IMG/VR virus record: IMGVR_UViG_3300005529_000442
Location: 1 to 24,913 of that record
DNA length: 24,913 nt
Direction: 5' to 3' (one strand)
Origin: a virus
In this document: piece after piece, positions 1,122-23,471 of the stretch
Position numbering within the stretch: the stretch's first letter is position 1
Layout: every line of letters begins with the position of its first letter
Notes under the pieces: model-generated
What the model was told of the DNA's origin: nothing
The model's database searches: none
Seen by the model: the letters and a program-made list of their open reading frames with translations, nothing else
Made by a program: the position numbers and the translations under genes

Positions 1122-1137
1122 GTTTCCCATGGGAAAC
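1122..1137. repeat. 16-bp palindrome GTTTCCCATGGGAAAC, copy 1
   Basis: This is a perfect dyad with no spacer. It lies 3 bases past the stop codon of the tail-fibre assembly gene (1141) and upstream of the fibre-like gene (1094). Identical copies lie at 7502 and 21419 and a one-mismatch copy at 14348. The ATG at its centre, read on the minus strand, opens a 10-codon ORF (MGNSQPPRGA, 1098-1130) that stops 3 bases before the next gene. Function unknown; a protein-binding site is the simplest reading. Confidence 0.9.
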
Positions 1138-1140
1138 GGA

Positions 1141-1596
1141 TCAGGCGGGAGGGACCGGCATGACGAACTTCGCCGGATCCACGGTGGTGAGGGCGAACAG
1201 CGCGGCGCGGTACTGCGACCAGGCCTGGCGCTGCTCGCCCGTGAGCGGCGCCTCGGGAAACGCGGTCCACAGGCAATGGGCCAGGGCGGCATCGCGACGG
1301 CGCAGGATTTGCGCCCGGGTCAGCGGCGGACGCGGGGGCGGCTCGACGTCGACGAGCTCGCCGTCGACCAGGGCCTTGGTGTGCGGCTGGGAGCACAGCG
1401 CCTGCCACTGCTCGTCCGAGATCTCGACCGCGCCGGCGGGGATCAGCGTGTGCGGATTCGGCACCCGCCGCAGTTGCGGCTCGGCGTCTGACTCGTCGGC
1501 CGCTTCGAGCTGTGTAAGCTCGCGCGGTCCATGCACATCGTCATGGTAGAAGGCGAGCGGCCGGCCTTCAGGGTTCAGCATTGCGTAGCGTTTCAT
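1141..1596 (-). CDS. Tail fibre assembly protein
   Basis: The protein has 151 residues, in the range of Mu gpU / lambda Tfa-type fibre assembly chaperones, which help fibres fold and trimerise and are encoded directly after the fibre gene. The pattern fits: an N-terminal MLNPEGRPLAFYHDDVH segment, a central 'PAGAVEISDEQWQAL' stretch typical of this family, a proline-rich linker, then a helical C-terminus with 'QRQAWSQYRAALFAL' and a WP/VP-type tail (VMPVPPA). The start at 1596 follows the fibre stop at 1598 by one base, so the two genes are probably translationally coupled. The family call rests on recognisable pattern and position. Confidence 0.8.
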   Translation of the reverse strand: MKRYAMLNPEGRPLAFYHDDVHGPRELTQLEAADESDAEPQLRRVPNPHTLIPAGAVEISDEQWQALCSQPHTKALVDGELVDVEPPPRPPLTRAQILRRRDAALAHCLWTAFPEAPLTGEQRQAWSQYRAALFALTTVDPAKFVMPVPPA

Positions 1597-1597
1597 G

Positions 1598-2230
1598 TCA
1601 GAACCCCACCGTCAGGTAGCCATAGCCGTCGGACTGGTCGCTGGGCTGGCCATCCCACTGGACCATGATTGCCCCGGCGCTCAGGGTGGTGCCGGCCTGG
1701 TCCCACTGCGCCCACACGTCGTCGCTGGTACTGGAGGTGTTGTTCAGCACGAGCGGCACCAGGACCAGGCACTGGTTCGGAAACGCGATGGGGAATGGAA
1801 ATGTGTAGTGGCCTTCCGATGCGGAGGTGACCACGTAACCCCATTGCATGATCAGATTCTTCTTAATGCCCCCGATCGACAGCGGGATGACCGCGTAGCC
1901 AGGCACGGTGAGGCTTCCCGTGAAGCCCAGGTTGGCGAGGGCCGCAGGCAACGATGCGAGGTCGGAGAGGTTGTTGGCCTTGAGCAGCGCGTTGCTATTG
2001 CCGAGGACGCCGATGGCATCGCGCAGCTGCGTCAGCACCGCCTTGTTCGGCGTGATCCCGGCCGCGACGATGACGTTGCGGATCTCCTCGATCAGCGCGT
2101 GCAGCAGCCAGGCGCGGAAGGTTGTCGGCGCCTGCGTGCCCGGCACGCCGTCGGTGGGATAGCCCGGCGTGCCGGGCGCGGGAATCGTCGGCGGCGTGGC
2201 GATGCAGGAAGCGTCGTCGTATCTGTCCAT
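1598..2230 (-). CDS. Tail fibre protein with gp53-like C-terminal domain
   Basis: The protein has 210 residues. The N-terminus is rich in Pro/Gly/Thr (PPTIPAPGTPGYPTDGVPG), followed by a helical segment (FRAWLLHALIEEIRNVIVAAG...TQLRDAIGVL) of the kind that attaches fibres to Mu-like baseplates. The C-terminal half has the signature of gp53-like receptor-binding domains: 'LIMQWGYVV', 'HYTFPFPIAFPNQCLVLVPLVLN' and a final aromatic 'YGYLTVGF'. It lies directly after gp48 (stop 2232) and before the fibre assembly gene, the expected order. It should recognise the host surface at the tail tip. It is short for a fibre, so the next long fibre-like gene may supply a second adhesin. Confidence 0.8.
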   Translation of the reverse strand: MDRYDDASCIATPPTIPAPGTPGYPTDGVPGTQAPTTFRAWLLHALIEEIRNVIVAAGITPNKAVLTQLRDAIGVLGNSNALLKANNLSDLASLPAALANLGFTGSLTVPGYAVIPLSIGGIKKNLIMQWGYVVTSASEGHYTFPFPIAFPNQCLVLVPLVLNNTSSTSDDVWAQWDQAGTTLSAGAIMVQWDGQPSDQSDGYGYLTVGF

Positions 2231-2231
2231 T

Positions 2232-2768
2232 TCAGGTCGTGCCGAAGAAAAGCGGGGTATGGGCCTGGTTGACCGAGTTCATCTCGCACTCGAGCACCGC
2301 ATCGAGCGCCGGGCAGACCACCTCCCAGGTGGACATCCATTCCTGGCCACCCAGCGGCTCGCCCATGTGGCTGCGGCCGCAGCGGAACGGCGCGAAGTAG
2401 CGGATGGTGATGCTGTAGCCGAGGTTGGCGGCGAAGTTGATGTAGCCGAGGCGGGTGTTGCTGCCCACGCCGACGAAGCGCGCCAGGACCTGCGCCTGCT
2501 GCTGGTCCAGCGTGGGGCTGGTGCCGGCGCAGAGATCCGGCAGGCCGAGCGAGTCCTGCCATTCCGGCAGCAGCTGCACCGGCGCGCGCGGGAAGGCGTC
2601 GGCCAGCAGCGCATTGGCCGCGATCACGGTGCGCTCAGGGCTCTTGGCCAGGGCGGCGAGCACCTTGGTCTGCGTCGCATCCGGATCGCGCGGCCAGGCA
2701 CGGCCGCGCGGCATCAGCGCCTGAAATGCGCCAAGGAAGTCGTCGGCGGAGTAAACCGGGGCGGCCAT
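2232..2768 (-). CDS. Mu gp48-like baseplate protein (DUF2313)
   Basis: The protein has 178 residues. It begins YSADDFLGAFQALMPRGRAWPRDPDATQTK, the characteristic start of the DUF2313 / Mu gp48 (YmfQ) family: a short helix, then 'LLP.G.aWp.d'. A 'LLPEWQDSLGLPD' motif follows, also typical. The C-terminal half ends with aromatic and charged residues around a Cys-containing segment. Its ATG overlaps the gp47 stop (TGATG at 2768). gp48 proteins sit at the baseplate periphery between the J protein and the fibres, which agrees with gene order. Nothing is unusual in length or content. Confidence 0.87.
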   Translation of the reverse strand: MAAPVYSADDFLGAFQALMPRGRAWPRDPDATQTKVLAALAKSPERTVIAANALLADAFPRAPVQLLPEWQDSLGLPDLCAGTSPTLDQQQAQVLARFVGVGSNTRLGYINFAANLGYSITIRYFAPFRCGRSHMGEPLGGQEWMSTWEVVCPALDAVLECEMNSVNQAHTPLFFGTT

Positions 2769-3907
2769 CAGACGTAGCTGACCGTGCCGAGCACGGGCAG
2801 ATGCCCCTGGGGCGGCGTGATATTGCCAGGCGCGCCGCCGTTGATCTGCGTGATGACGAAGCCGGTGGTCAGCGGCACCGCGGCGATCGCGGATTCGATG
2901 TCGCCCAGGTTAACCGTGCCCCGGTTCGGCGAGCCTTCGCGCAGGAAGGTGTCGGTGATCGCCTGGGCGATGGCGGCGCGAGTGCCGCCGCTCGAGCCGG
3001 CCAGGCCGCTGATGGTGAAGTTGTAGACGGACGCGATGGGCGCCACCACGTAGACCAGGGCGGTGTTGGTTTGAACGGTGTAGATGTGGTTGGCCACCGC
3101 CAGCTGGTCGCCGGTCGCCGCAGTGTCGCGCGGGTCGGACAGCGAGACGCCGTCGCTGCCCTGGGGGAATCCGCCATGCGCGGCCTCGGTCACGTCCAGC
3201 ATGATGTAAACGACGACCGTGCCGCCGCCCATGCCATTCGGCCAGCACCAGGCGCGCGTGACGCCGTTCACCTGCTTTGCCCACGTTACGTAGTCGCCCG
3301 TTTTGCCGATCAGCGGATCGGTCTGGTAGGCCTCCAGCATGCGGGTCTTCAGGGACTCGTCCAACTCCAGGTCGGCGCCGCCGGTGAAGGCGGAGGATCC
3401 GGTGCTTGAGCTGGCGATCGTCGCGATCGCGGTGCCGAGGGTCCAGACTGTGTTCGCCTCGCAGTTACCGAACGCGCCGGTCCGGCCGGAGGGGTCCGCA
3501 TTGACCACCGCCGTGACGGTGACGCTGCCGCCGCTGACCGAGGCGCCGACGGTGACCGTGGCCTCGATGCCGTCGCCGCGGCTGATCGGCGTGCCGATCG
3601 GGATGGGGACGCCGTCCAAGGTGCCGGCGAAGGTCACGGTGCCGGTCGCCGAGGTCGCACTCTCGCGGAACACGTCCTTGAGCCCGGCCCAGGCCTCCAG
3701 GAACTCGTCGGTGGAGGTGTACGGCACTGCCTGCTTCGCGATCCAGTCCAGGTATCCCTGGTCCAGGTTCTCCATCGCCGCCTGCACCGCGCCCATGATC
3801 TGCAGGTTCGAGAAACGCAGCAGGGGATCCGAGCCTTGCAGCGCGGAGGCGATGTCCTGCGCCACCTGGGCGCGGAGCTGCGTCAGGGTGGGGCGGGAAC
3901 GAGGCAT
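2768..3907 (-). CDS. Baseplate wedge protein J (Mu gp47-like)
   Basis: The protein has 379 residues. N-terminal sequence 'RPTLTQLRAQVAQDIASALQGSDPLLRFSNLQIMGAVQAAMENLDQGYLDWIAKQ' fits the Baseplate_J (Mu gp47 / P2 gpJ) family, whose members form the baseplate wedge of contractile tails. The middle contains Ser/Thr/Gly-rich beta segments. A 'KTRMLEAYQTDPLIGKTGDYVTWAKQVNGVTRAW' stretch follows, as in other family members. The start at 3907 is 3 bases after the gp46 stop at 3911. The 3' end overlaps gp48 by TGATG. Length matches Mu gp47 (about 360 residues). Neighbours on both sides are Mu-type baseplate genes, so I regard the call as firm. Confidence 0.92.
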   Translation of the reverse strand: MPRSRPTLTQLRAQVAQDIASALQGSDPLLRFSNLQIMGAVQAAMENLDQGYLDWIAKQAVPYTSTDEFLEAWAGLKDVFRESATSATGTVTFAGTLDGVPIPIGTPISRGDGIEATVTVGASVSGGSVTVTAVVNADPSGRTGAFGNCEANTVWTLGTAIATIASSSTGSSAFTGGADLELDESLKTRMLEAYQTDPLIGKTGDYVTWAKQVNGVTRAWCWPNGMGGGTVVVYIMLDVTEAAHGGFPQGSDGVSLSDPRDTAATGDQLAVANHIYTVQTNTALVYVVAPIASVYNFTISGLAGSSGGTRAAIAQAITDTFLREGSPNRGTVNLGDIESAIAAVPLTTGFVITQINGGAPGNITPPQGHLPVLGTVSYV

Positions 3908-3910
3908 AGG

Positions 3911-4357
3911 TCAGTTCAGTTGCTTCCAGCTCCACTGGAACTTCATGGGAACCACGGTGCCGTCGGTGCGGTTGATCGTGATCTCGACGCCCAGCATCTC
4001 GCGAGCGGGGAAGAACGCGTTCACGTCGATCGACGCGGCTACGCCATCGTCGATCAGCCATTGCAGCGCCTCGGCGCAGCAGTCGTTGGCCCTGGCCAGC
4101 ACTTCCTGCGTCTGCACCGAGCGGTCCAGCAGCCACAGCCGCGAGCCGATGGGGTGCTGCGGATCCGTGTCGCCCCACCAGCCGCGCGGATTGCTGCTGC
4201 CGTCCGGGATCACGTCGTCCGGGGCGGCAGTGCGATCGGTGAACAGGCTGATGATCACGGCCGTGTCCAGGTCGTTGCCGTCCTGCAGCTTGCGGCCGAC
4301 CAGCACCCAGTCGCCGCGGCCGTTCTGAACATCCCAGATGGTGGCGGTGTCGGTCAT
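3911..4357 (-). CDS. Mu gp46-like baseplate protein
   Basis: The protein has 148 residues, like Mu gp46 (GP46 family; functionally similar to P2 gpW/T4 gp25 components). It shows the family layout: an early 'DLDTAVIISLFTDRTA' segment, a 'RGWWGD...GSRLWLLDR' core with the conserved GWWGD motif, a helical 'NDCCAEALQWLIDDGVAASIDV' segment, and a C-terminal beta 'VEITINRTDG...FQWSWK'. The ATG at 4357 overlaps the gp45 stop by ATGA. It lies between the spike gene (gp45) and the wedge gene (gp47), the canonical order, so it should be part of the inner baseplate ring or wedge. Confidence 0.92.
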   Translation of the reverse strand: MTDTATIWDVQNGRGDWVLVGRKLQDGNDLDTAVIISLFTDRTAAPDDVIPDGSSNPRGWWGDTDPQHPIGSRLWLLDRSVQTQEVLARANDCCAEALQWLIDDGVAASIDVNAFFPAREMLGVEITINRTDGTVVPMKFQWSWKQLN

Positions 4358-4968
4358 TCGAGCGCGTCCGGCACGTTGGAGAGGATGGTCGACAGCCCGG
4401 TCTGGACGTTGGCCACCTGGTGGTGGTGCCCGTTGTAGATCACGCGCATTTGCGCCATGCTGCGTGTGTTCGGCGTGAGGCCGCCGACGTTGTCGATGAT
4501 GTCGCCGGTGACCTCGAGCAGCGGCGTCTCGAAGCGCGCCTTGACCGAGGCCTGCACCAGCAGCTGCTGCGCGCCGTTGATGTTCACCACCGGCGCATTG
4601 TTGACGTTGATCGGGTTGCCGCCGCCGTTGACCACGATGCCGGTCCGGCTCAGGTACACCGACTGGCCGTTGCCGTCGTAAACCATCACCTCGCCGGGCT
4701 GCAGGTTCTTCGGCCGCAACGCCTGGTTGTTGGTGCCGATGACCACGCCGTCGGTCCGGTCGCCGTCGATGAAGAGGGCAATGCCATCGGTGCCGGCGGG
4801 CGGATTGCTCGCCAGGCCGAATTCGGCGATGCGGCGCAGGGTCTCGGTCTCAAACGGCCCGAACACCACCTGCACGCGCTGCGTATTGCCGCTGTCGTCT
4901 ACCAACTGGATGCGGCCGCGCCCCACCAGGTAGCGCACCAGGAAGCGGATGCGGTCAACCAGGCTCAT
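4354..4968 (-). CDS. Baseplate spike protein V (Mu gp45-like)
   Basis: The protein has 204 residues, like Mu gp45 (197), the trimeric membrane-piercing spike at the baseplate centre. The N-terminal half is an OB-fold-like region (RGRIQLVDDSGNTQRVQVVFGPFETETLRR...). It includes a hydrophilic 'IDGDRTDGVVIGTNNQ' segment typical of the family. Residues about 100-150 hold short repetitive beta segments (VYLSRTGIVVNGGG, PVVNINGAQQLLVQA) expected of a beta-helix spike. Near the C-terminus is 'YNGHHHQ', a histidine cluster in the position where the apical metal is bound in related spikes (inference). It follows gp44 by 2 bases. Confidence 0.92.
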   Translation of the reverse strand: MSLVDRIRFLVRYLVGRGRIQLVDDSGNTQRVQVVFGPFETETLRRIAEFGLASNPPAGTDGIALFIDGDRTDGVVIGTNNQALRPKNLQPGEVMVYDGNGQSVYLSRTGIVVNGGGNPINVNNAPVVNINGAQQLLVQASVKARFETPLLEVTGDIIDNVGGLTPNTRSMAQMRVIYNGHHHQVANVQTGLSTILSNVPDALE

Positions 4969-4970
4969 GG

Positions 4971-6089
4971 TCAGAGCCCGGCCTTGCCGAGGGCCTGCTC
5001 CACGTCGCGCGCCAGTGGCTGGTAGGCGATCGGCTCCGGGATGAAGGCCTGCTGCGGCATCAGCAGCAGCTCGGCGGTGGTGCCGGTCTGCGCGTTGCGG
5101 CTGTAGGTCACCTCGTTGATCAGCCAGTCGTTATAGTTCACGCCGCCCACCACCGGCGTCTTGCCGCCAATGCGCAGGCTGGGCAGGTACAGCGGCACCA
5201 GCTTGTTCGGCTGCCACAGCTCACCGGCGCTGTCGCGCCAGCTGTCGCAGGTCAGTGTCAGTGCGTTGGAGCGGCCGATCTGCCGCGCATAGTCCCACAC
5301 CGCGCGACGGATGCAGATGTCCAGCCCGCTGACCGAGGACTCGGCCACGATCGCCTTGGCGCGATGACGCGGCACCGCCTTGTCCTCGATATCCGCCAGC
5401 TCGTTCCAGCCCATGCCGACGTCATCCAGCATGTCCATGGCCTGGATGAAGGCCCTATAGTTGCTGTAGCGGCCATTCATGCTGTAGCGCGCCGTGGCGC
5501 GCTGCACGTTGACGCCTTCCTTGAAGCCGCTGGCGTGGTAGGTGGTGCCCACCCCATCCAGCACCAGGTTGCCGTCCGCGTTCTCGTAGAGCAGCAGGCC
5601 GCGATAGCGGCACATGCGCTCCAGGATGTCGTAGGGCGCCTCCAGCACGTTGAGGTTGGTCTGCGGAATCACCGCGCCGATATCGGCCTGCGGGCCTGCG
5701 ATCGCATCAATGTTGTATTTTTTGGCCAGCTTTTGCGCGATCTGCAGCACCGTGTTGTTGCTGATCTGGCCGCCGGGCCATTCGGCGGAGCAGTCCACCA
5801 GGTCCTGGCACTTGCCGCGACCGCTGATCAGGATGACGTGGCCAGCCGGATCGATGGTCGGCTCGAACACGTCGATATAGCCGGTGACCACCACGTCGTT
5901 GCCCAGCTTGACCTGGCAGGCGTCGCCGGGCTGTACGACGACCGCCTGCATCTCGGGCGGGAACAGCTCGGTCATGTGGATTTCGAAATCGCTGGGGAAG
6001 CGCTCGATGCCGCGCGTGACGCGGATATCGGTCCAGCCCCGCAGCTGAACCTGGCTGCCCTTTACGAGTAAAGTAAGCTCGTCCGCCAT
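4971..6089 (-). CDS. Baseplate hub protein (Mu gp44 / gpP-like)
   Basis: The protein has 372 residues from the ATG at 6089; a GTG at 6101 would add four. Start 'ADELTLLVKGSQVQLRGWTDIRVTRGIERFPSDFEIHMTE' is typical of Mu gp44 / P2 gpD / T4 gp27-type hub proteins, followed by 'VQPGDACQVKLGNDVVVTGYIDVFEP' and 'ISGRGKCQDLVDCSAEWPGG'. These form the hub that connects the tube to the spike. Length agrees with Mu gp44 (379). GGAG on the minus strand lies 11 bases before the ATG, within a dyad that also supplies the GGAG of the divergent gene at 6105. Upstream is the accessory island rather than gpN, so late transcripts must cross the island to reach this gene, or it needs its own promoter. Confidence 0.9.
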   Translation of the reverse strand: MADELTLLVKGSQVQLRGWTDIRVTRGIERFPSDFEIHMTELFPPEMQAVVVQPGDACQVKLGNDVVVTGYIDVFEPTIDPAGHVILISGRGKCQDLVDCSAEWPGGQISNNTVLQIAQKLAKKYNIDAIAGPQADIGAVIPQTNLNVLEAPYDILERMCRYRGLLLYENADGNLVLDGVGTTYHASGFKEGVNVQRATARYSMNGRYSNYRAFIQAMDMLDDVGMGWNELADIEDKAVPRHRAKAIVAESSVSGLDICIRRAVWDYARQIGRSNALTLTCDSWRDSAGELWQPNKLVPLYLPSLRIGGKTPVVGGVNYNDWLINEVTYSRNAQTGTTAELLLMPQQAFIPEPIAYQPLARDVEQALGKAGL

Positions 6090-6093
6090 GACC

Positions 6094-6105
6094 CGGAGCA
6101 CTCCG
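6094..6105. promoter_or_regulatory. Dyad CGGAGCACTCCG giving a GGAG on each strand
   Basis: The 12-bp dyad (5-bp arms, 2-bp centre) lies in the 15 bases between two divergent starts. On the plus strand its GGAG sits 6 bases before the GTG at 6105. On the minus strand its GGAG sits 11 bases before the ATG at 6089. It can therefore serve as the Shine-Dalgarno for both genes. There is no room for promoters between them. Confidence 0.5.
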
Positions 6106-6620
6106 TGAAGCCTATGAAAATTGGGTTGATGCTGCTTCTGCTATGGCCACTACTCGCTGACGCGGCGCCGCTTTGGCGCACGACACATGAGGGGACCATC
6201 GCCTGTTTTGTGGAGGACTCGCCCCATGCCGCGGAGGTAAAGTTGCATGAAGCACGCAAATCGGGCGCAGCCATGCCGCCTGGGTGCGGCCACCTAAAGA
6301 AAGGCTTCCAGTTTTCCCGCTATAACGAAGCCTGCTATCAGGCGCCCTGCGAACCCGGCGTCAACGATATAGACGCCTACGGCGCCGTCCTCAGAACCGA
6401 TGGGGATCGGGACTTCTTCTACGTTTCGGAAGCTGATACCGAACCAGTGCTCGACGCTGATGGCCAGCCAGTTTCTGATCCGTGCGATGCCGCCGGAGCC
6501 GGCGGCGAGTTCGACCGCCTGGAAGCCGCGCCAGACGGCCGGCTCTACCTCAAGCGCTACCTCTTCACGACGCGGTGCAAGGACGGGCGCGTGCAGCAGC
6601 ACGTCAAGCGGTTGAACTGA
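6105..6620 (+). CDS. Exported protein of unknown function, only plus-strand gene (moron-like)
   Basis: The protein has 171 residues from GTG at 6105 (GGAG 6 bases upstream) or 168 from ATG at 6114. Residues 4-22 (MKIGLMLLLLWPLLADAAP) form a clear Sec signal peptide with a small-residue cleavage region. The mature part is acidic and soluble-looking, with seven Cys residues (CFVED, GCGH, ACYQAPC, DPC, RCKDG), which suggests disulfides in the periplasm. I do not recognise a family. It is opposite to all other genes and convergent with the 90-codon gene, with a long GC-rich hairpin immediately after its stop. Slightly lower GC at its 5' end and the inverted position suggest a lysogenic-conversion or superinfection-exclusion type moron; that role is inference. 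Confidence 0.75.
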   Translation: MKPMKIGLMLLLLWPLLADAAPLWRTTHEGTIACFVEDSPHAAEVKLHEARKSGAAMPPGCGHLKKGFQFSRYNEACYQAPCEPGVNDIDAYGAVLRTDGDRDFFYVSEADTEPVLDADGQPVSDPCDAAGAGGEFDRLEAAPDGRLYLKRYLFTTRCKDGRVQQHVKRLN

Positions 6621-6657: not shown

Positions 6658-6666
6658 CCAGGGCCT

Positions 6667-7339: not shown

Positions 7340-7510
7340 TTAATCCCCGATCGGGCGCGGATCCATCTCGATCTGCACCATGCCCTCAAGCAGATCCTCG
7401 ATCACAGCCGCCGCTTCATTGAGCAGCTCTGGTGTATTGGAGCTGGCGGCGGCTTTGCGCAGCCGCTCGAGCAGGTCCGCCTGGCGGTTGTCAGTTGTCG
7501 GGTTTCCCAT
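7340..7510 (-). CDS. Small helical protein starting inside the 16-bp palindrome
   Basis: The ORF has 56 residues from the ATG (7510) at the centre of palindrome copy 2. The sequence is mainly one or two amphipathic helices (ADLLERLRKAAASS, LLNEAAAVIEDLLEGMVQIE). This is similar in style to the 'LLeeAAdaIe.L' segments of small phage early-type proteins such as Ea/Ead families (style only). There is no Shine-Dalgarno at normal distance before this ATG, because the palindrome occupies that place. Translation may therefore depend on coupling to gpN (stop at 7536), or the start may differ. The open frame continues upstream into gpN without a better start. Probably real but weakly supported. Confidence 0.5.
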   Translation of the reverse strand: MGNPTTDNRQADLLERLRKAAASSNTPELLNEAAAVIEDLLEGMVQIEMDPRPIGD

Positions 7511-7517
7511 GGGAAAC
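7502..7517. repeat. 16-bp palindrome GTTTCCCATGGGAAAC, copy 2
   Basis: This copy is identical to copies 1 and 4. It lies 18 bases after the stop of the gpN-like gene (7536). Its central ATG is the apparent start of the 56-codon gene below it. The distance from copy 1 is 6380 bp and to copy 3 is 6846 bp. Confidence 0.9.
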
Positions 7518-7535: not shown

Positions 7536-8858
7536 TCAGCTCGCCAGCGCCTTGAAGCGGGCCGGCAGGAAGGCCGGGTGCGGCACGTCGCCAGCAAACT
7601 CGACCAGCTGGTCCGCCCGGGCGGGATCCCGGTACAGGCGCTGGGCCAGGACCAGGGACGGCACCGGCGCCGGCGAGTCCACCTCGACGATATCCGGCAG
7701 GCCGGCGCCGCGCGAGGCCAGGTCCTGGGCGACGTCTGCGCGGAGCTGGCGCAGGGCGGCGTAGCTGTCATCGTCACCGGCGTCGCCGGCGGTGGTGATC
7801 TCCAGGTCGATCAGGCCACAGACCTGGCTGCGGACGGCCGCGGCGTCGTCGGCCGAGGCCGGCTGGTAGGCCGCGGCGGCCTGGGCCAGCGCCTGCAGGG
7901 TGGCGCGGCGGAACAGGCCCAGGCAGGCGGTCTGCGCGGACAGTATGGCCAGGGGGATGGCGGAGTTGCCCAGCACGGGCTCCTCGGTGTAGCCGTAGAG
8001 GCTTCCCAGCAGGCGCAGGGCGCTCCTGGGGTCCTGGATCGCGGCCAGGAGGGCCTGGGCCAAGGCCTGGACGGCGTTGCCGATGGTGGCCGGGTCCCCG
8101 CCGGTGGCGGCCGTATTCAGCGCCGCGACGGCCGCCGCGACGCTCGCCCGGTTGGCGGCGCCGGCGGCGATCAGGGACGCCGTGGTGGCGCCGGTGGAGG
8201 CCTGCGGCGACACGTTGATGTTGGCGAAGCCCACCCGGCCGCCGCCGAAATATCGGCCGTAGGTGCCGGAGATGTTGGTCGGCAGGCTGACCAGCATGCT
8301 GAACAGGTTGGTGGCGTCGTTGGCCAGGCCGCTGATCTGCGCGCTCCAGCCGGTGACGGTGTCCACCACCTGGTGGGCCACGGCCGAGCCGAGGGACAGC
8401 GCCGCCCGCAGCTCGGTGACGAAGCCGCCCAGGGCGGCCTGGAACATGGCCAGCGCCGAGGCCTGGCTCGCCGCCCCTGTCGCGGACTGGATGTCCGGAA
8501 AGACCTGGTCGCCGCCGACGATGAAGCTGAACTGGATCTCGATGACGCGGCCGCGCTCGGTCTCGCGGAACGGCTGCTCGCCCAGCACGCTGACCTGCAG
8601 CCGGCCCAGGCTGGGGTGCACCAGCGTGCCCGGACCCGGCGTCTCGATCGCCTCCAGCATGCGGGCGCGCTGCGCGGCGACATCGTCGCCCACCAGCCGC
8701 CCGAGGATCGACAGCCGCCGGACGCTCTTGCCCATGTCCTCGGGCCAGTAGTCCTCGCGGTTAGGGTACTCGTGGATCGCCTGGCGCCGGCCCGGGCGCA
8801 GGTCGTTGCTGTTGACGAAGAACGGGACCCCGCGAAAGGTGGCTTGCTTGGTCGTCAT
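7536..8858 (-). CDS. Mu gpN-like tail/DNA circularisation protein
   Basis: The protein has 440 residues. The N-terminal domain (about 1-110) matches the DNA_circ_N family seen in Mu gpN: 'ATFRGVPFFVNSNDLRPGRRQAIHEYPNRE...YWPEDMGKSVRRLSILGRLVGDD...IETPGPGTLVHPSLGRLQVSV', then 'IEIQFSFI'. The remainder is alanine-rich and helical, as in the family. The name 'DNA circularisation' is historical. In Mu-like phages gpN is a baseplate/tail component encoded after the tape measure, exactly its place here. It starts 24 bases after the tape-measure stop. Length is slightly under Mu gpN (about 490). The next expected gene (gp44) is displaced by about 1.4 kb of accessory DNA. Confidence 0.88.
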   Translation of the reverse strand: MTTKQATFRGVPFFVNSNDLRPGRRQAIHEYPNREDYWPEDMGKSVRRLSILGRLVGDDVAAQRARMLEAIETPGPGTLVHPSLGRLQVSVLGEQPFRETERGRVIEIQFSFIVGGDQVFPDIQSATGAASQASALAMFQAALGGFVTELRAALSLGSAVAHQVVDTVTGWSAQISGLANDATNLFSMLVSLPTNISGTYGRYFGGGRVGFANINVSPQASTGATTASLIAAGAANRASVAAAVAALNTAATGGDPATIGNAVQALAQALLAAIQDPRSALRLLGSLYGYTEEPVLGNSAIPLAILSAQTACLGLFRRATLQALAQAAAAYQPASADDAAAVRSQVCGLIDLEITTAGDAGDDDSYAALRQLRADVAQDLASRGAGLPDIVEVDSPAPVPSLVLAQRLYRDPARADQLVEFAGDVPHPAFLPARFKALAS

Positions 8859-14003: not shown

Positions 14004-14333
14004 TCAGGCCGGCGCGCCGAGCGCGTTCAGCAGCAGCAGCGCATGCCCGTGGCTATCCGGCTTGGGCTTGCGCACCGTGAAGCTGACGCCGGTGCGGATG
14101 CAGGTGCACTGCTCGCCCTGGCGCGGCAGGCGCGGAAAATCGGAGACGCGGATGCCGACCGCCGGGCCGGTGGTCATCACCGGCACGCCGCCGGCGAGCG
14201 ACTCCTCCTGGTAGGCCTCGTCGTAGACGCCAGCGGCCTGGAACGGCTGCAGGCCGGCCAGGCTCCAGGTGAAGGGCTCGCCGAAAACCCCGAGCAGGGG
14301 CCCGATGACGAGGCTGTTCCAGTCCACGCTCAT
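14004..14333 (-). CDS. Head-tail joining protein (lambda gpFII-like)
   Basis: The protein has 109 residues, close to lambda gpFII (117). The layout fits: N-terminal helix with 'GPLLGVFGEPFTWSL', an unstructured middle, then 'VPVMTTGPAVGIRVSDFPRLPRQGEQCTCIRTGVSFTVRKPKPDSHGHALLLLNAL'. The latter corresponds to the FII beta-barrel pattern (PSL.V...D...LrrGd.v.I....f.V....pD..G...L.L). gpFII caps the portal-gpW complex and docks the tail. In lambda it follows gpE; here the homing endonuclease sits between them. Its ATG overlaps the endonuclease stop (ATGA, 14330-14333). Confidence 0.75.
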   Translation of the reverse strand: MSVDWNSLVIGPLLGVFGEPFTWSLAGLQPFQAAGVYDEAYQEESLAGGVPVMTTGPAVGIRVSDFPRLPRQGEQCTCIRTGVSFTVRKPKPDSHGHALLLLNALGAPA

Positions 14334-14989
14334 GCATCAGCCTCGCCGTTTCCCATGAGAAACGAATCAATACCCCAACGGGCGGCGCGTACCCGCGCGA
14401 TGACTTCCGGCGATCGCTTGCGGCGCATCTTGGCGATCACTTCCGGAGGTCGCGGCTTCCCACGCTTTGAAGCAGCAATGGTTTCGGATATCCGGGCGCG
14501 TTCTTCGGGCGTGCGCCGAGCGTTAGCTGCCGCCATCTTTGCAGCCAGTGCCGATCGCTGTTCCGGCGTTCTCTGCGCATGTACGGCGCGGAGTCGTGAA
14601 CGCGTTTCAGGAGAAACCTCTTTACCACGATGAATGTGCGAGATACGAAGCTTGAAGGATTCGGGCTGCGGGTGGCCGCTACGTCCATCACCGCCTATGG
14701 TGAGGTTATAACCACCACCAAACGTGCCAAACAAAGCTATGGCATCAATTTCAGCACGCGCCGCAGTCGGCCAGTCTGGATATGACGCGAGCTGTTCGAT
14801 GCCGAAGGCATCCGCACCATGCTTGCGAATCGCAGCACCGAGTAAGGTCTTGCACCGTAGGCTGGAACGTCTAGAGTTTCGGATATGTTCACCCCACCGA
14901 ACTCGGAGGGTCTTTGAGGTGATGCCTACATAGCACCTGCCATTTGCATGGCAGGTGACTAGGTAAAGCAAGACCTCACACGGGGACAT
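14330..14989 (-). CDS. GIY-YIG homing endonuclease with NUMOD3 repeats
   Basis: The protein has 219 residues from ATG at 14989, where the GIY-YIG module begins; the frame upstream is only the capsid gene out of frame. Domain order: GIY-YIG catalytic module at about 6-100 with 'LLYLVT' (7-12), 'CYVGITSK' (19-26), Arg31, His35 and the likely metal-binding Glu80, ending 'GGYNLTIGGDG'. Residues about 110-200 then hold three NUMOD3-type DNA-binding repeats (SPETRSRLR, TPEQRSALAAK, TPEERARIS). Free-standing members cut unoccupied alleles in rival phages and spread by repair. It separates the capsid and head-tail joiner genes. GC near its 5' end is about 52% over 100 bases, clearly below its neighbours, which suggests recent arrival. 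The last codons contain palindrome copy 3. Confidence 0.92.
   Translation of the reverse strand: MSPCEVLLYLVTCHANGRCYVGITSKTLRVRWGEHIRNSRRSSLRCKTLLGAAIRKHGADAFGIEQLASYPDWPTAARAEIDAIALFGTFGGGYNLTIGGDGRSGHPQPESFKLRISHIHRGKEVSPETRSRLRAVHAQRTPEQRSALAAKMAAANARRTPEERARISETIAASKRGKPRPPEVIAKMRRKRSPEVIARVRAARWGIDSFLMGNGEADA
14348..14363. repeat. 16-bp palindrome, copy 3 with one mismatch
   Basis: Plus-strand GTTTCCCATGAGAAAC differs from the other three copies at one base. It lies within the last codons of the endonuclease gene, 15 bases before the head-tail joiner start. Read on the minus strand its ATG is in frame with the endonuclease and would give MGNGEADA, ending on the ATGA overlap. Confidence 0.8.
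14934..14957 (-). promoter_or_regulatory. 10-bp hairpin with GCAA tetraloop in the endonuclease 5' coding region
   Basis: On the minus strand CACCTGCCAT pairs perfectly with ATGGCAGGTG around a GCAA (GNRA) loop, 32-56 nt into the endonuclease mRNA. Hairpins near the start of phage homing-endonuclease genes are known to limit their expression (for example in T4). The same role here is inference. Confidence 0.55.
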
Positions 14990-18053: not shown

Positions 18054-18914
18054 TTATCCCAGCTCCTGGAGCAGGGCCTGAAATGCGGCGTCCGGCGCCA
18101 TAACGGCGTCGGCGAAGCCGAGGTCGACGCCGGCGGCGCCGAGGTAAGTGGCGGCCTCGGTGGCACGCACGCGCGAGGCCTTGAGGCCGCGGTTGCGCGC
18201 GACCGTGTCGACGAACAGCTCGCCCATGGTGTCGACGTCGGCCTGGAAGCGGGCGAGCGCCTCCTTGCTCAGCGGGATGACCTGCTGGCCGTCGGCCTTG
18301 CGCTTGCCGTACTGGATCAGCGTGACGTTGATGCCGCTCTCGCTCAGCGCCTGGCTGAAGTCGACGTGCATGCAGATGACGCCGACGCTGCCGGTGCCGC
18401 CGGTGCGCGGCACGATGATGCGGTCGGTGGCGCTGGCCAGGGCATAGGCGGCGGAATAGGCGTATTCGCTCAGCACCGACCAGATCGGCTTCTCGCCGCG
18501 CACCTGGTAGACCGCGTCGACTAGGTCGAAGCAGCCCGCCACCTCGCCGCCGGGCGATTCGATGTCCAGGACGATGGCGCGCACCGCCTCGTCCTCGAGC
18601 GCCATCGAGAGGCAGGCGCGGATCCCGTCGTAGCCGGTCATGCCGCTGTATGGCCGCATGGTGCCGAGCTTCTGCACCAGGGTGCCCGTGACCGGGATGA
18701 TCGCCACGCCTTCCACCACCTGGTACGGCCGGCTCTCGGCCGGCTCGTCCTCCAGGCCGAAGCTCTCGATCGCGAGCGTTTCGCCGTTGGCGTTGAACAG
18801 GTGCGCGATGCCGAAACGGTCGGCCAGCGCGGCCATGACCAGCTCCGCCTTGCGCGGCGTGATCGCCAGCGGCACGTTGAACAGGCGCTGGGCGAGGTGG
18901 GGCAGGTTGCGCAT
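18054..18914 (-). CDS. S49-family prohead protease (lambda gpC-like)
   Basis: The protein has 286 residues. The S49/SppA-like fold is clear: 'VEGVAIIPVTGTLV' (68-80), 'GYDGIRACLSMALEDEAVRAIVLDIESPGGEVAG' (94-127) with the conserved SPGG oxyanion motif, nucleophile Ser154 in 'YAYSAAYALAS', then 'GTGSVGVICMHVDFSQAL' and the general base Lys206 in 'KRKADG'. Such proteins cleave scaffold, portal and capsid N-termini during prohead maturation. The N-terminal 60 residues (NLPHLAQRLFNVPLAITPRKAELVMAAL) are the usual phage extension. Unlike lambda C, no scaffold is fused at the C-terminus. The ATG overlaps the M50 protease stop (TGATG at 18914), so the two proteases are translationally coupled. Confidence 0.92.
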   Translation of the reverse strand: MRNLPHLAQRLFNVPLAITPRKAELVMAALADRFGIAHLFNANGETLAIESFGLEDEPAESRPYQVVEGVAIIPVTGTLVQKLGTMRPYSGMTGYDGIRACLSMALEDEAVRAIVLDIESPGGEVAGCFDLVDAVYQVRGEKPIWSVLSEYAYSAAYALASATDRIIVPRTGGTGSVGVICMHVDFSQALSESGINVTLIQYGKRKADGQQVIPLSKEALARFQADVDTMGELFVDTVARNRGLKASRVRATEAATYLGAAGVDLGFADAVMAPDAAFQALLQELG

Positions 18915-19417
18915 CAGCGCACCAGCTCGGCGGCCGGCCGGCCGAGCAGCCAGCGGGCGATGTGCGCACCGTCGAACGGCGCGAACGGCAGCAGGTTGAT
19001 GACGGCCATCGAGGCGTTGACGATCACGCCGGCGTGGCCCATCGCCTGCAGGCCGGGAGCGACGTCCATCCGGCTCAGGGCATACCAGGCCAGGCTCATC
19101 GCGAGGTTGGCGGCCGGGCCGGCGGCGTGGACCAGCGCCAGGTCGCGCCGCGGGCGACGCAGCAGGCGGCTGTTGATCGGCAGCGGCCGGCCCCAGCCCA
19201 GGACCAGACCGGTGCCGGTGAGGATCAGCAGCAGCGGCAGCACCAGGGTGCCGGCCGGGCTGACGTGGCGCAGGGGGTTGAGGCTGAGGCGGCCGAGCGC
19301 CCGCGCGGTGCCGTCGCCCAGGGCCAGCGCGGCGTAGCCGTGGGCCACCTCGTGCAGGGTCAGGGCCAGCAGCACCGGCAGTAGCCAGACCGCCAGGGTG
19401 ATCAGCGTTGCGTTCAC
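18914..19417 (-). CDS. M50 (site-2 protease-like) intramembrane metalloprotease
   Basis: The protein has 167 residues, starting with GTG at 19417 that overlaps the portal stop (GTGA). It has all landmarks of the small bacterial site-2 protease group (YwhC-like): the zinc motif HEVAH (His22, Glu23, His26) inside a first hydrophobic helix; 'GRLSLNPLRHVSPAGTLVLPLLLIL' (42-66); 'GWGRPLPINSRLLRRPRRDLALVHAAGPAANLAMSLA' (74-110); and 'NLLPFAPFDGAHI' (141-153) with the third zinc ligand Asp149. Three to four membrane spans are expected. It should cut substrates within the membrane. The family is common in bacterial chromosomes but is not part of any phage head set I know. Overlaps on both sides show it is an established member of this operon, not a loose insertion. 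It is slightly shorter at the C-terminus than typical members (about 200-220). Confidence 0.9.
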   Translation of the reverse strand: MNATLITLAVWLLPVLLALTLHEVAHGYAALALGDGTARALGRLSLNPLRHVSPAGTLVLPLLLILTGTGLVLGWGRPLPINSRLLRRPRRDLALVHAAGPAANLAMSLAWYALSRMDVAPGLQAMGHAGVIVNASMAVINLLPFAPFDGAHIARWLLGRPAAELVR

Positions 19418-21078
19418 TTCGCCTCCGTCGCGGCTTGCAGCGATTTGTCGTCCGTCCCGCCGGCGCCGATCCAGGACGGGTAGGGCAGCCCGCGGTCGGC
19501 GTAGGCGCGGCGCTCGATCTGCCGCTGGTCGAGCTGCTCCTCCCAGTCCTCGCCGTAGAGCTCGGCGGTCTCGCGCTTGAGCGTGCCCATGCCGATATCC
19601 ATGGCCATCGCCGAGCCCTGGATCTCCTTGGGCTTGTCGATGAAGCCGCGGCCAGGGCCGAGCCAGCCGCAGCGGGAGTACTCGGTCATCGCCTCCTGGT
19701 AGGACGGGGCGTCGTCCGGCAGCGGCACTTCGCCGCGCTCGAACTCCTCGGCCAGCCAGGTGGCATACATCGGGGTGGCAGTCTCGGCGCAGAACTCGCT
19801 GCGCCGGCGCACCACGGTCTTCCAGGCGTCGGCGAGGGCACCGCGGAGGTTGGAGTAGTTGCTCTTGCTCCAGTCCTGGCTGACCTGCTCGATGGTCTGG
19901 CCGGTGCAGGCGGCGAAGACGCGCAGCATCTCCTGCGCGAACGGCGTGAACTCGGTGTGCGGGTGCGCGCCGCTGACCTGTTCGATCTTCTCGCCGGGCG
20001 CCAGGGTGGGCACGCGCACGCCGCCCATCATGGCGGGGCGCTCCTTGTGCCAGTCCGCGCGCAGGCTCTGGTACCGGGACAGGTCCGCGTTGCTGCCGTC
20101 GTCCAGGGCGTCCGAGACCTGGGCGGGATCGTAGGGGCTGGTGACGTAGGTGCCGAGCACGCTGGCCAGGGTGGCGGCCTGCAGCTCGACGCCGTAGTAG
20201 CGCGCCAGCATCTTCATGTGGGCGATCACCGGCGCGAAGATGCCGATGCCCCGGGACTGGCCGGCGCGCTTCTTCTCGTAGCCGTGGAAGACGCGCTGCC
20301 AGCCGTCAGGGTCGTGCTTCTCGACGCGGTCCCAGATCATGCTCTCGACGGCGTTGTACCAGTCGTTCTGGTGCGCGCGGCGGATGTGGTAGGCGATGTG
20401 GGCGCCGTCCTCGTCCAGCTCCACGCCGCCGCGCAGATAGCGGGTGTCGACCATCTGGTACGGGTTGGACAGCCGGTCCGGGTCCACCACCTGGAAGCAG
20501 GTGGCGTAGCGCGCGGCGCCGGCGCCGATCAGCTCCGGCTTCCAGTACGAGACTGCCAGGTTGTCGCCGTCGACCAGCTTGTGCGACATCATGAGGTACC
20601 ACTGCTGCCCCATGGTCTGCTCGCGGGTGACGTCGTTGAAGTGGTTGACGTCGTAGGCGAACGTGCGCCAGCAGGCCTCGACGTACTTGCGGAAGTCGTC
20701 CGCCCACTTGGCGTCGAATTTCTTGCTGAACCGCTGCAGCGCGCGGTAGTCCGGCGAGGCGTGCAGCCTCAGGTCGCATCCCAGGGTGTTGTCCAGGATG
20801 CGCATGATGCCGCCGACGATCCAGCCGTCGTTGCGGTACAGGTCCCGGCTGCGCGCGACCATGCGGTCGCGGAACTGGTTGATCTCGGCGTCCGGGCTGC
20901 GGATCCACGGCAGCCAGTCGCCCATCTCCTGCGACTGCCAGCGCGCCGCCTCGTAAGGGAAGACGCTGCGCGCGTAGCCGTCGCCGCCGGGATAGCCCGG
21001 TGCGCCGTCCGCGCGGGCGCGCAGGGGCCGGCCGCTGCTGTCGACCAGCACCGGCAGGTTGGCTCGGGGCGCGGCCAT
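19414..21078 (-). CDS. Portal protein (lambda gpB family)
   Basis: The protein has 554 residues, close to lambda gpB (533). The ATG at 21078 overlaps the gpW stop (TGATG); the same frame stays open far upstream through terminase but is not coding there. Family features: 'YEAARWQSQEMGDWLP' and 'RDLYRNDGWIVGGIMRILDNTLGCDLRLHASPDY' near the N-terminus, 'QWYLMMSHKLVDGDNLAVSYW', 'VDPDRLSNPYQMVDTRYLRGGVELDEDG' and 'CTGQTIEQVSQDWSKSNYSNLRGALADAWK'. The portal dodecamer is the DNA entry channel and binds terminase and gpW/gpFII. In lambda, gpB is trimmed at its N-terminus by gpC; the protease is encoded two genes downstream, after the unusual M50 gene. The firm family pattern and context make this call secure. 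Confidence 0.95.
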   Translation of the reverse strand: MAAPRANLPVLVDSSGRPLRARADGAPGYPGGDGYARSVFPYEAARWQSQEMGDWLPWIRSPDAEINQFRDRMVARSRDLYRNDGWIVGGIMRILDNTLGCDLRLHASPDYRALQRFSKKFDAKWADDFRKYVEACWRTFAYDVNHFNDVTREQTMGQQWYLMMSHKLVDGDNLAVSYWKPELIGAGAARYATCFQVVDPDRLSNPYQMVDTRYLRGGVELDEDGAHIAYHIRRAHQNDWYNAVESMIWDRVEKHDPDGWQRVFHGYEKKRAGQSRGIGIFAPVIAHMKMLARYYGVELQAATLASVLGTYVTSPYDPAQVSDALDDGSNADLSRYQSLRADWHKERPAMMGGVRVPTLAPGEKIEQVSGAHPHTEFTPFAQEMLRVFAACTGQTIEQVSQDWSKSNYSNLRGALADAWKTVVRRRSEFCAETATPMYATWLAEEFERGEVPLPDDAPSYQEAMTEYSRCGWLGPGRGFIDKPKEIQGSAMAMDIGMGTLKRETAELYGEDWEEQLDQRQIERRAYADRGLPYPSWIGAGGTDDKSLQAATEAK

Positions 21079-21350
21079 CAGAACTGCGGCGAGATCGCGG
21101 CGCGGCGGTTGATGCACTGGCCGTTGGCGCGGTCGATCTGCGTCTGCAGCGTGAGGATGGCCTGCACCAGGTCGCCGAGGTTGGCGCGGGTGTAGGTCAC
21201 CGACTTGCTGCCGTCGCCCTGGGCGTAGCTGGCCACTTCCGCCTTGCCGCCGCTGGTGAGGTCCAGGTAGGCCTGCTGCAGGGCGGCCAGGCGCGACTGC
21301 AGCGTGGCGATGTCGATGCCGTCGAGGATGCTGGTGCGGCGCGTGAACAT
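21078..21350 (-). CDS. Head-tail connector gpW
   Basis: The protein has 90 residues. 'DIATLQSRLAALQQAYLDLTSGGKAEVASYAQGDGSKSVTYTRANLGDLVQAILTLQTQID' is the classical gpW fold: helix, beta hairpin with the 'SY.qGD.Ksv.Yt' strand, helix. gpW binds below the portal after DNA packaging and prepares the site for gpFII. The order terminase large, W, B is the lambda order. The start at 21350 lies 9 bases after the terminase stop (21360). The protein is a little longer than lambda gpW (68) by a basic C-terminal tail. Confidence 0.93.
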   Translation of the reverse strand: MFTRRTSILDGIDIATLQSRLAALQQAYLDLTSGGKAEVASYAQGDGSKSVTYTRANLGDLVQAILTLQTQIDRANGQCINRRAAISPQF

Positions 21351-21359
21351 CTGCAGCTC

Positions 21360-23471
21360 CTAGGCGAGACGGCTGGCCAGCGAGCGCCGCTCGGGCGCTC
21401 CCGCCGGCGCCGCCCCGGGTTTCCCATGGGAAACGGGCGGCGTCGGCGGTGCAGTGGCGGTCGCTGGGTTGTCGGGTGAGGCCGGCGCCTGGGCGTCGAC
21501 CATGGTGTTGTTGTCCCAGGGCGCGGCCCAGGGAAAGGGCTGTTCCCAGTTGATGCGCGAAAGGCCGTGCAGGTGCGCGGCGACGTGCGTCAGGACCATC
21601 AGGTCCAGCGCTTCGTTGCGCGCGTTCGCGGACTTCTTTTCCCAGCGTCCGTCGGCGCGGCGGTGCTCCGCGGCGAGCTGCTCGAAAAACGGGTGCGGTG
21701 CTTCCTTGGCGCGCAGGCCGCGCGGGAAGTGCACGTAGCCCGGGCCGGGCTCCGCCACCTTGAGCTGGGCGACGAGCCCGTCCTTGAACAAGTTCGGGTT
21801 GAACGAGGCCAGCGGCACCTGGCCGCGGGCGATCTTGCCGGCCTTGCGCTGCGTGTCCGGGTAGACGACGACCAGGCGCTGGGCGTTGACGGCCTTGGCG
21901 CCCTTGGACGGCAACAGCGACCACGCCTCGCGGCCGTTGATGAGGCCATAGGAGCGCAGCTTGCGCCGGCGGTGCCAGCGGATGAAGGAGCCGTAGGCCT
22001 GGTCGGTGACGCCGGGCACGCCCTGCGAGTCGAAGATCGCGCCGCGCGGCCGCATATGCCGGCCGCTGCCATCGGCCAGTGGCCAGCTCTTGCTCAGCAC
22101 CTGGTCGAGCAGCTGGTCCCAGTCCTCGGGTGAGGTGTCGACCGAGGCCGGCAGCTTGCCGTGCTCGATGATCCAGCTCTCGCCCTTAACGCCCCAGCCG
22201 CGCACGAGCCACTCGAAGTGCGCCGCCTGGATGTCTGCCGCGACGGTGATGAAGCGCACGCCGTCCGGCACGACACCACGCGTGAGCGACGACTCGGCGC
22301 GCTCGGCCAGGACGTTGGCGTCGACCGTGCCCTCGGCCTTGAGCGTGAGGCGCGGGTAGCCCCACTGCTTGGCCATGACCTGGTGGAAGGTCTTGATGGC
22401 GTCATCGCCGCCGTTTTCGGCGTCGCGCTCGGCCTTGGCGCGGGCGCGCGCCAGGGCGCCGATGCCGCCGTCGACGAATAGGCTCATCGTGCCGACGATC
22501 CAGAAGCCGGCAATGCGGTGTGGCTGCAGCTCGCCGGTGACGACGCCGTCCTCGCTGATCTCCTGGCCGAGGCCGACGTAGCGGCCGTAGCGCAGCATCT
22601 CGCGTCGGTAGCTGTCCTCGATGTGGCAGCCGGCGGTCGGGCAGATCAGGCGCGCTTCGGCCTGCACCTCGTCGAGCGGGGCGTTGGCCGGATACCAGAG
22701 GCCCATGTGCCGCGGCGCGATCGGGATCGGGCTCGACCAGGCGCCGCAAAGCGGGCAGGGCCAGTACCACATGCGCCGGTCGCTGTCGCGGTACCAGGCG
22801 AGGATGCCCTCGGTCCACTTCTCCGGGTCCAGGCCGTAGGCCAGGTCCGGGTGGCTCATGCCCAGGATCTTGCCGTGGCGCCCGAAGTTGGTGATGCGGA
22901 CGTCGAACTGCGCCTTCACGTCTCCGAGCGAGCGCAGGTAGGCGTCGATCTCGTCGGCGACGATGCGCGGCGCCGTCTTGCTGATCAGGTTCGCCTGGGT
23001 CGCCGACAGGAACTCGGCGCGCATGCCGGCGAAGCGCTTGAACTTCATGCTCCGGTCTTCGGGCCGCGAGCCGAGGCGGCCGGAGAGCTGCGGGTGCAGC
23101 TCGATCATCGGGTTGATCTGCGCCTTGACGTAGGCGTCGCGCAGATCGTCCGTCGGCATGTACCACAGCATGTCGCCCGGATCCGTGGCCACCGACTTCA
23201 GCAGCCAGTTCTCGGCGATGCTGGTCTTGCCGCTGCGGCCAGGGCCCACCACGGCCACCGCCTGGTGCTCCAGGGACGTGAGGCAGTCCATCGGCTCGAC
23301 CAGGAACGGCGCGAGCTCGTGGTTCCACGGGCCGGAGTAGGCACCGGCGGGATTCGACAGCAGGCGCTTGCGGGCCGCGTACTGCGACACCGTCTCGCGC
23401 GCGCGCGGCCGGAGGATGTCCAGCACGTCGCGGAACACCGCGCGGGCGGAGGCGTAGGGTGCGTCGAGCAT
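21360..23471 (-). CDS. Terminase large subunit (lambda GpA family)
   Basis: The protein has 703 residues (lambda GpA 641). The ATPase has Walker A 'GPGRSGKTS' (76-84) and Walker B-type 'RIVADEIDAYL' with Asp173/Glu174. A zinc-binding-like 'CPLC' and 'CPTAGC' insert follows, as in many GpA proteins, then the nuclease half with 'VRFITVAADIQAAHFEWLVRGWG' (acidic active site), 'AIFDSQGVPGVTDQAYGSF', and 'NEALDLMVLTHVAAHLHGL' near the end. It packages DNA and, in this family, cuts cos ends. Residues from about 655 are an Ala/Pro-rich disordered tail. Palindrome copy 4 falls in this tail and encodes VSHGKP. Start at 23471 is 4 bases after the small subunit stop. Confidence 0.95.
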   Translation of the reverse strand: MLDAPYASARAVFRDVLDILRPRARETVSQYAARKRLLSNPAGAYSGPWNHELAPFLVEPMDCLTSLEHQAVAVVGPGRSGKTSIAENWLLKSVATDPGDMLWYMPTDDLRDAYVKAQINPMIELHPQLSGRLGSRPEDRSMKFKRFAGMRAEFLSATQANLISKTAPRIVADEIDAYLRSLGDVKAQFDVRITNFGRHGKILGMSHPDLAYGLDPEKWTEGILAWYRDSDRRMWYWPCPLCGAWSSPIPIAPRHMGLWYPANAPLDEVQAEARLICPTAGCHIEDSYRREMLRYGRYVGLGQEISEDGVVTGELQPHRIAGFWIVGTMSLFVDGGIGALARARAKAERDAENGGDDAIKTFHQVMAKQWGYPRLTLKAEGTVDANVLAERAESSLTRGVVPDGVRFITVAADIQAAHFEWLVRGWGVKGESWIIEHGKLPASVDTSPEDWDQLLDQVLSKSWPLADGSGRHMRPRGAIFDSQGVPGVTDQAYGSFIRWHRRRKLRSYGLINGREAWSLLPSKGAKAVNAQRLVVVYPDTQRKAGKIARGQVPLASFNPNLFKDGLVAQLKVAEPGPGYVHFPRGLRAKEAPHPFFEQLAAEHRRADGRWEKKSANARNEALDLMVLTHVAAHLHGLSRINWEQPFPWAAPWDNNTMVDAQAPASPDNPATATAPPTPPVSHGKPGAAPAGAPERRSLASRLA
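21419..21434. repeat. 16-bp palindrome GTTTCCCATGGGAAAC, copy 4
   Basis: This is an exact copy within the terminase large subunit 3' coding region, about 60-75 bases before the stop, in the part encoding a low-complexity tail. It is 7071 bp from copy 3. Being read in a different frame from the copy in the endonuclease gene, it is conserved as DNA, not as protein. Confidence 0.9.

What the first reader, a model, noticed from the sequence alone, without database searches (positions are those of the whole stretch)
1122..21434. Four copies of a perfect 16-bp palindrome at near-regular 6.4-7.1 kb spacing
GTTTCCCATGGGAAAC lies at 1122, 7502 and 21419 exactly, and at 14348 with one mismatch; intervals are 6380, 6846 and 7071 bp. 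Three exact 16-mers in 25 kb cannot be chance. Copies lie at gene ends in different frames or between genes, so selection is at DNA level. Candidates: dispersed repressor operators or stoperators (as in P1 and mycobacteriophage L5), a host-factor or partition/condensation site, or a tiny mobile palindrome.
Basis: seen in the sequence. Interest (0 to 1): 0.72.

Follow-up and report, generated by a model that had tools for sequence, protein, structure and literature searches.

The report
Dispersed loading sites for phage ParB
A 16-letter mirror-image DNA word sits every few thousand bases along this bacterial virus, and it is most likely the docking site for a virus-encoded DNA-clamp protein (ParB) that works without its usual partner ParA; the same arrangement, with other words, occurs in dozens of other temperate bacterial viruses.

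Summary
In detail: three exact and one one-mismatch GTTTCCCATGGGAAAC in 24.9 kb, 0 of 100 shuffles. The 51.7-kb closest relative (G001) carries seven copies, four at the same gene junctions as in the window; the 16 bp are kept while flanks differ by 25-50%. G001 shows what the window fragment lacks: an orphan ParB gene (ParB_N + KorB HTH, 522 aa) with no ParA and with one copy inside it. A blind search for dispersed inverted repeats then found a different perfect palindrome in other ParB-carrying phages (GCGAACGnCGTTCGC x17; TGCGAGCGnCGCTCGCA x4; GTGCA[CG]ACGT[CG]TGCAC in dozens of phages, typically 3-7 per genome) but not in ParB-less relatives. Conversely, 31 of 35 viral contigs chosen only for holding GTGCAGACGTCTGCAC encode ParB. 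I conclude that the copies are parS-like loading sites for a phage-encoded, probably CTP-dependent ParB clamp, dispersed so that clamps can reach the whole genome. What the clamp does there (long-range regulation, compaction, protection) is inferred, not shown. Repressor stoperators are disfavoured: no copy lies in the immunity region. Not all phage ParBs have such sites. I found no report of this arrangement in the literature held.

The parts
1122..1137 (.). parS-like palindrome GTTTCCCATGGGAAAC, exact; junction between tail-fibre-assembly-like gene 1141-1596(-) and gene 213-1094(-)
   Evidence: syntenic with G001 6263 (one mismatch) while flanks are 53-62% identical
7502..7517 (.). parS-like palindrome, exact; after baseplate-hub gene 7536-8858(-), ATG is start of small ORF 7340-7510(-)
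   Evidence: syntenic with G001 12251 (exact), flanks 49-60% identical
14348..14363 (.). parS-like palindrome with one mismatch (GTTTCCCATGAGAAAC); 14 bp upstream of head-closure gene 14004-14333(-), overlapping the end of a homing-endonuclease-like ORF
   Evidence: syntenic with G001 19958 (exact); window/G001 DNA alignment ends at this site
21419..21434 (.). parS-like palindrome, exact; inside terminase ORF 21360-23471(-), in its C-terminal tail, encoding VSHGK
   Evidence: syntenic with G001 26704 and G002 1620, both exact
21360..23471 (-). terminase large subunit (context; used to find relatives)
   Evidence: phrog_15 3e-159
14330..14902 (-). homing-endonuclease-like ORF inserted between capsid and head-closure genes (context, not part of the system)
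   Evidence: phrog_314 5e-13; the window/G001 alignment breaks here

Best explanation
The copies are loading sites (parS-like) for an orphan ParB encoded elsewhere on the same phage genome. ParB binds the 16-bp palindrome as a dimer, is expected to bind CTP there, close into a clamp and slide onto neighbouring DNA; several dispersed sites let clamps reach most of the genome although each clamp travels only kilobases. SHOWN: sites are real, syntenic and conserved above their flanks; the nearest relative has a ParB gene with a site in it and no ParA; ParB and dispersed perfect palindromes co-occur across unrelated phages in both directions of search. INFERRED: that the ParB binds these sites, that it is CTP-dependent, that the window phage has the same parB (its fragment ends before that region), and the outcome. 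My guess for outcome: genome-wide clamp loading for organisation or long-range regulation of the phage genome (KorB-like regulation about 0.4, compaction or segregation with host factors about 0.3, protection or other about 0.3).
For: (1) G001, with 7 sites, encodes ParB_N (2e-22) + KorB HTH (3.5e-9) at 41309-42877, with site 42566 inside it; its sequence keeps GERRWRA and ENLQRE; nearest solved proteins are Spo0J, ParB, Noc and KorB by sequence and by fold. (2) Blind inverted-repeat search: log10 p -12.6 window, -24.3 G001, and four further ParB carriers from -10.2 to -30.9, each with its own palindrome; five ParB-less relatives no better than -3.2. (3) In 80 viral loci picked for a VarioGold-like ParB, GTGCASACGTSTGCAC occurs 150 times (66 loci) against 0 for each of 12 permuted palindromes; 34 whole records chosen for having sites have 3-7 each and 0 of 34 has ParA. 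(4) Reverse: 31 of 35 contigs of at least 30 kb picked for the bare 16-mer encode ParB_N. (5) A copy lies inside parB in G001, G028, G030, VarioGold, Aval (two mismatches), Yong-DA and 50 of 80 loci; in the last set codon choice is bent to the DNA word (GCA 47/55 against 14%). (6) Spacing more even than random: window P 0.002, G001 0.05, G030 0.001, median 0.11 over 31.
Against: No binding data. The window itself contains no parB; the link runs through one metagenomic relative, G001. Ten ParB-bearing Paraburkholderia-type relatives, three other ParB-like phages (Schnabeltier, Roos, ctl617) and some VarioGold-like phages show no strong repeated palindrome, so ParB alone does not predict sites. 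The constant in-parB position in the VarioGold family coincides with a conserved protein motif, which weakens that point apart from the codon bias. Even spacing is only a tendency, and related phages are not independent. The C-terminal half of the G001 ParB model is of low confidence.
Confidence: 0.83

Rival explanations
1. Repressor stoperators or operators: sites bound by the phage immunity repressor to silence the prophage, as in mycobacteriophage L5.
For: Several near-identical dispersed copies in a temperate phage; in the relative G020, TTTACCCATGGGTAAA and near-copies cluster at 35.3-36.3 kb, as operators would.
Against: G001 has no copy between 30313 and 40579, which includes the S24 repressor gene 38567-39424 and its upstream region; VarioGold has none of its palindromes between CI and Cro (33665-33740). 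Sites are perfect palindromes without orientation. They track ParB in both directions of search.
Confidence: 0.05
2. ParB sites, but acting as KorB-type operators: sliding ParB silences phage promoters at a distance, perhaps with a promoter-bound partner.
For: The HTH of G001 ParB matches the Pfam KorB domain and solved KorB. KorB slides from its 16-bp OB to promoters up to 1.5 kb away (PMC11790492).
Against: Most sites sit inside long same-strand structural gene runs, at gene ends, not beside obvious promoters; no KorA-like partner was sought. It differs from the best explanation in outcome only.
Confidence: 0.33
3. Multiple centromeres of a plasmid-type prophage partitioned by ParA-ParB, as in N15.
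For: N15 uses four separate IR centromere sites (PMC7205306); Yong-DA (ParA + ParB) has five dispersed GTTCAGACGTCTGAAC, one inside parB.
Against: No ParA in G001, VarioGold, Aval or 34 further phages; G001 and VarioGold encode tyrosine integrases.
Confidence: 0.08
4. ParB sites that mark phage DNA for modification or packaging, as proposed for phage ParB-terminase loci.
For: Published proposal quoted in PMC6536676; G001 encodes a DNA-adenine-methylase-like protein at 33684-34520 (read from sequence only).
Against: parB is not next to terminase or methylase in G001 or VarioGold.
Confidence: 0.06
5. Tiny mobile palindrome or homing target, spread by transposition or by the adjacent endonuclease.
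For: A homing-endonuclease-like ORF abuts the 14348 copy and the window/G001 alignment breaks there.
Against: Same gene junctions in relatives, no shared flanks between copies, ParB association; G001 carries the 14348-equivalent site although the window/G001 alignment gives no sign of the endonuclease there.
Confidence: 0.02

Closest known systems
Chromosomal ParB-parS (Spo0J and relatives)
   Same: 16-bp perfect palindrome, few copies per replicon, a copy can lie within parB; ParB_N CTPase fold with HTH
   Different: No ParA; different word (chromosomal parS is TGTTTCACGTGAAACA, from general knowledge); sites spread over the whole phage genome
KorB-OB of plasmid RK2
   Same: ParB-family clamp with the KorB-type HTH Pfam domain; 16-bp sites; also a long-range regulator
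   Different: OB sites are placed by promoters (PMC11790492); these are mostly within structural gene runs; no KorA analogue known
Noc-NBS of Bacillus
   Same: ParB relative without ParA, dispersed NBS; half-site TTTCCC/GGGAAA resembles NBS ATTTCCCGGGAAAT (from memory)
   Different: Two extra central bases; phage-borne; no evidence of membrane targeting
N15 SopB and its dispersed IR centromeres
   Same: Phage genome with several separate palindromic ParB sites
   Different: N15 has SopA and a plasmid prophage; G001 and VarioGold lack ParA and encode integrases
Orphan phage ParBs of the 2025 ParB-CTPase survey (PMC12704722)
   Same: Orphan ParB-CTPase proteins enriched in prophages
   Different: That paper treats fold and nucleotide; no palindromic DNA targets are mentioned (0 hits for 'palindrom')

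Membership tests
ParB-parS | ParB_N CTPase fold with conserved nucleotide motifs encoded on the same replicon | tested here: met
   Met in G001; the window fragment ends before this region (none in G000)
ParB-parS | HTH DNA-binding domain after the CTPase domain | tested here: met
   PF08535 3.5e-9 in G001; confident in model to about residue 200
ParB-parS | Palindromic ~16-bp site recurring on the replicon | tested here: met
ParB-parS | Canonical parS sequence TGTTNCACGTGNAACA | tested here: not met
   No match within 3 mismatches in the window; one unrelated 2-mismatch match in G001
ParABS partition system | ParA ATPase partner | tested here: not met
   PF13614 and PF01656 absent in G001, VarioGold and Aval; PF13614 absent in 34 more phages
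ParABS partition system | ParA-binding motif (L/F/I)G(K/R)G(L/F/I) in ParB | tested here: not met
   Not seen in the G001 ParB N-terminus on reading
ParB-parS | ParB binds the site and loads as a CTP clamp | not testable with these tools
   needs biochemistry
KorB-OB | Dispersed sites on one replicon | tested here: met
KorB-OB | Sites positioned at promoters with a co-repressor (KorA) | tested here: inconclusive
   Most sites at gene ends within gene runs; promoters were not mapped, partner not sought
Stoperators (L5 type) | Sites include the repressor/early promoter region | tested here: not met
   No copy in G001 30314-40578 or VarioGold 33665-33740
Stoperators (L5 type) | Asymmetric sites oriented with transcription | tested here: not met
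   Perfect palindrome

The most novel reading that the evidence does not exclude
Many temperate phages carry an orphan ParB plus a handful of roughly evenly dispersed loading sites so that sliding clamps coat the entire phage genome, a ParA-free genome-organising or protecting system whose site sequence diverges between phage lineages.
Probability: 0.4. Interest if true: 0.8.

Novelty: new variant of a known kind. Interest (0 to 1): 0.64.

Why it matters
Orphan ParBs are common on phages but their DNA targets and purpose are unknown. These data give concrete 16-bp targets for several orphan phage ParB lineages, including isolated phages such as VarioGold, so binding, CTP-dependence and function can be tested at once. 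They also suggest that ParB clamps serve integrating phages without any partition ATPase, widening the known uses of this clamp.

Tried and rejected
Scan of relatives for the same 16-mer: absent in 25, so the word is clade-specific. Canonical parS search: nothing convincing. Ranking repeated palindromes by count alone was swamped by GC-rich words, hence the background-corrected search. Covariation of site base 6 (C/G) with the HTH was dropped: both bases occur within one genome. ParB of G001 alone found no viral relative. Paraburkholderia-type ParBs: no repeated site found. Five phages picked for few or no GTGCAS sites gave no strong alternative. No paper held contains the 16-mers.

Full report
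OBSERVATION. Shuffled sequence gives 0.05 matches on average and never four. Intervals 6380, 6846 and 7071 are correct. The window (68% GC) is a fragment of the structural half of a temperate-type myovirus: terminase, portal, S49 protease, decoration protein, capsid E, sheath, tail lysozyme, baseplate, nearly all on the minus strand.

RELATIVES. Only 14 stretches of 2.9 million viral contigs hold the exact 16-mer. Five of these stretches, with six copies, belong to one contig, IMGVR_UViG_3300013767_000215 (G001, 51,681 bp), and one to a close relative, G002; the other contigs have one exact copy each, which I take to be near chance (one of them, G009, has a second site with two mismatches). 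G001 shares 75-83% DNA identity over the window's genes and has six exact and one one-mismatch site; four are at the window's four places. Sites are kept at 15-16 of 16 bases while 120-bp flanks are 49-75% identical. Twenty-five phages with more distant terminases (roughly 48-58% identity) lack it.

A PARB IN THE SAME GENOME. G001 supplies the half that the window lacks: tyrosine integrase, S24 repressor and a 522-aa ParB at 41309-42877. One site (42566) is inside parB, another (40579) at the end of a gene upstream of it. ParA families are absent and no ParA-binding motif is seen in the N-terminus. By sequence the nearest solved proteins are Spo0J, ParB, Noc and KorB; the AlphaFold model is confident for the CTPase domain and HTH only (residues ~10-200) and matches the same structures, including Noc bound to its site and KorB.

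A BLIND TEST. I searched whole phage genomes for dispersed inverted repeats, corrected for composition. Six records stand out at log10 p of -10 or below: the window, G001, and four that encode ParB: G030 (GCGAACGnCGTTCGC, 17 copies), G028 (TGCGAGCGnCGCTCGCA, 4), Variovorax phage VarioGold (GTGCAGACGTCTGCAC, 5-6) and Acidovorax phage Aval (GTGCACACGTGTGCAC, 4-5). VarioGold and Aval were fetched because ParB was annotated, before any palindrome was sought. Five ParB-less relatives give nothing better than -3.2. A plasmid-like ParA+ParB record, Yong-DA, has five dispersed GTTCAGACGTCTGAAC.

GENERALITY, BOTH DIRECTIONS. A scan for VarioGold-like ParB returned 80 loci; GTGCASACGTSTGCAC occurs 150 times within one mismatch in 1.3 Mb, in 66 loci, against zero for each of 12 permuted palindromes. 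Of 40 whole records then searched, 34 chosen for having sites carry 3-7 each; six chosen for few or none carry 0-5. None of the 34 has ParA. Conversely, of 35 contigs of at least 30 kb chosen only because they hold GTGCAGACGTCTGCAC, 31 encode ParB_N. In 50 of 80 loci a copy sits 742-850 bp into parB; it overlies a conserved S/G-A-D-V-C-T-D protein motif, but alanine is spelled GCA in 47 of 55 there against 14% elsewhere in these genes, so the DNA word itself is selected. G001, G028, G030, VarioGold, Aval (two mismatches) and Yong-DA all have a site inside parB; by my arithmetic about 3 in 10,000 if placement were random and the six independent.

LIMITS. Not every phage ParB behaves so: ten Paraburkholderia-type relatives, Gordonia phage Schnabeltier, Faecalibacterium phage Roos, ctl617 and some VarioGold-like phages show no strong repeated palindrome. 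The window's own parB is inferred from G001. Related phages are not independent samples. The host chromosome was not searched for the 16-mer.

MECHANISM. Shown: conserved dispersed palindromes tied to an orphan ParB. Inferred from ParB, Noc and KorB biology: binding, CTP-dependent closure and sliding (for KorB, PMC11790492). Sites lie mostly at gene ends, in short junctions or in protein tails, where a 16-mer is tolerated, and are spread more evenly than chance (window P 0.002; G001 0.05; G030 0.001; median 0.11 over 31 records). That fits whole-genome clamp loading better than promoter-by-promoter control, though long-range silencing like KorB's remains possible. The immunity regions of G001 and VarioGold contain no site, against stoperators.

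NOVELTY. No paper in the library held contains these 16-mers. The 2025 survey of orphan ParBs does not mention palindromic targets, and the VarioGold paper reports ParB but no sites. Dispersed ParB-family sites are known on plasmid RK2 (KorB) and phage-plasmid N15 (with ParA). I therefore call this a new variant of a known kind.

Noticed in passing
G001 (L077) 46479-49443 of G001: Likely diversity-generating retroelement: reverse transcriptase (PF00078 3e-17) next to several repeated Lcl/C-lectin-like ends (...FVRAVRSVSPASPG).
   Followed up: no
window 18914-19417 (-): Peptidase M50-like membrane protease gene (PF02163 1e-9) between S49 protease and portal; also in G001 at 24189-24692.
   Followed up: no
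window 14330-14902 (-): Homing-endonuclease-like ORF (phrog_314) inserted between capsid and head-closure genes; its last codons contain the imperfect palindrome copy.
   Followed up: partly
G030 (L130-L132), 59.9 kb: 17 copies of GCGAACGnCGTTCGC about every 3.5 kb and a ParB with an N-terminal Cro/C1-type HTH; a small ParA-like gene lies at 54.2 kb.
   Followed up: partly
G020 35297-36282: Cluster of TTTACCCATGGGTAAA-like palindromes, probably repressor operators of that relative.
   Followed up: no
ON073792 (L177): Record named Aphanizomenon phage Yong-DA looks like a plasmid (replication protein, ParA, ParB, polysaccharide genes, no annotated structural genes).
   Followed up: no
G001 36611-37777: ISL3-family transposase inserted upstream of the S24 repressor gene.
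   Followed up: no
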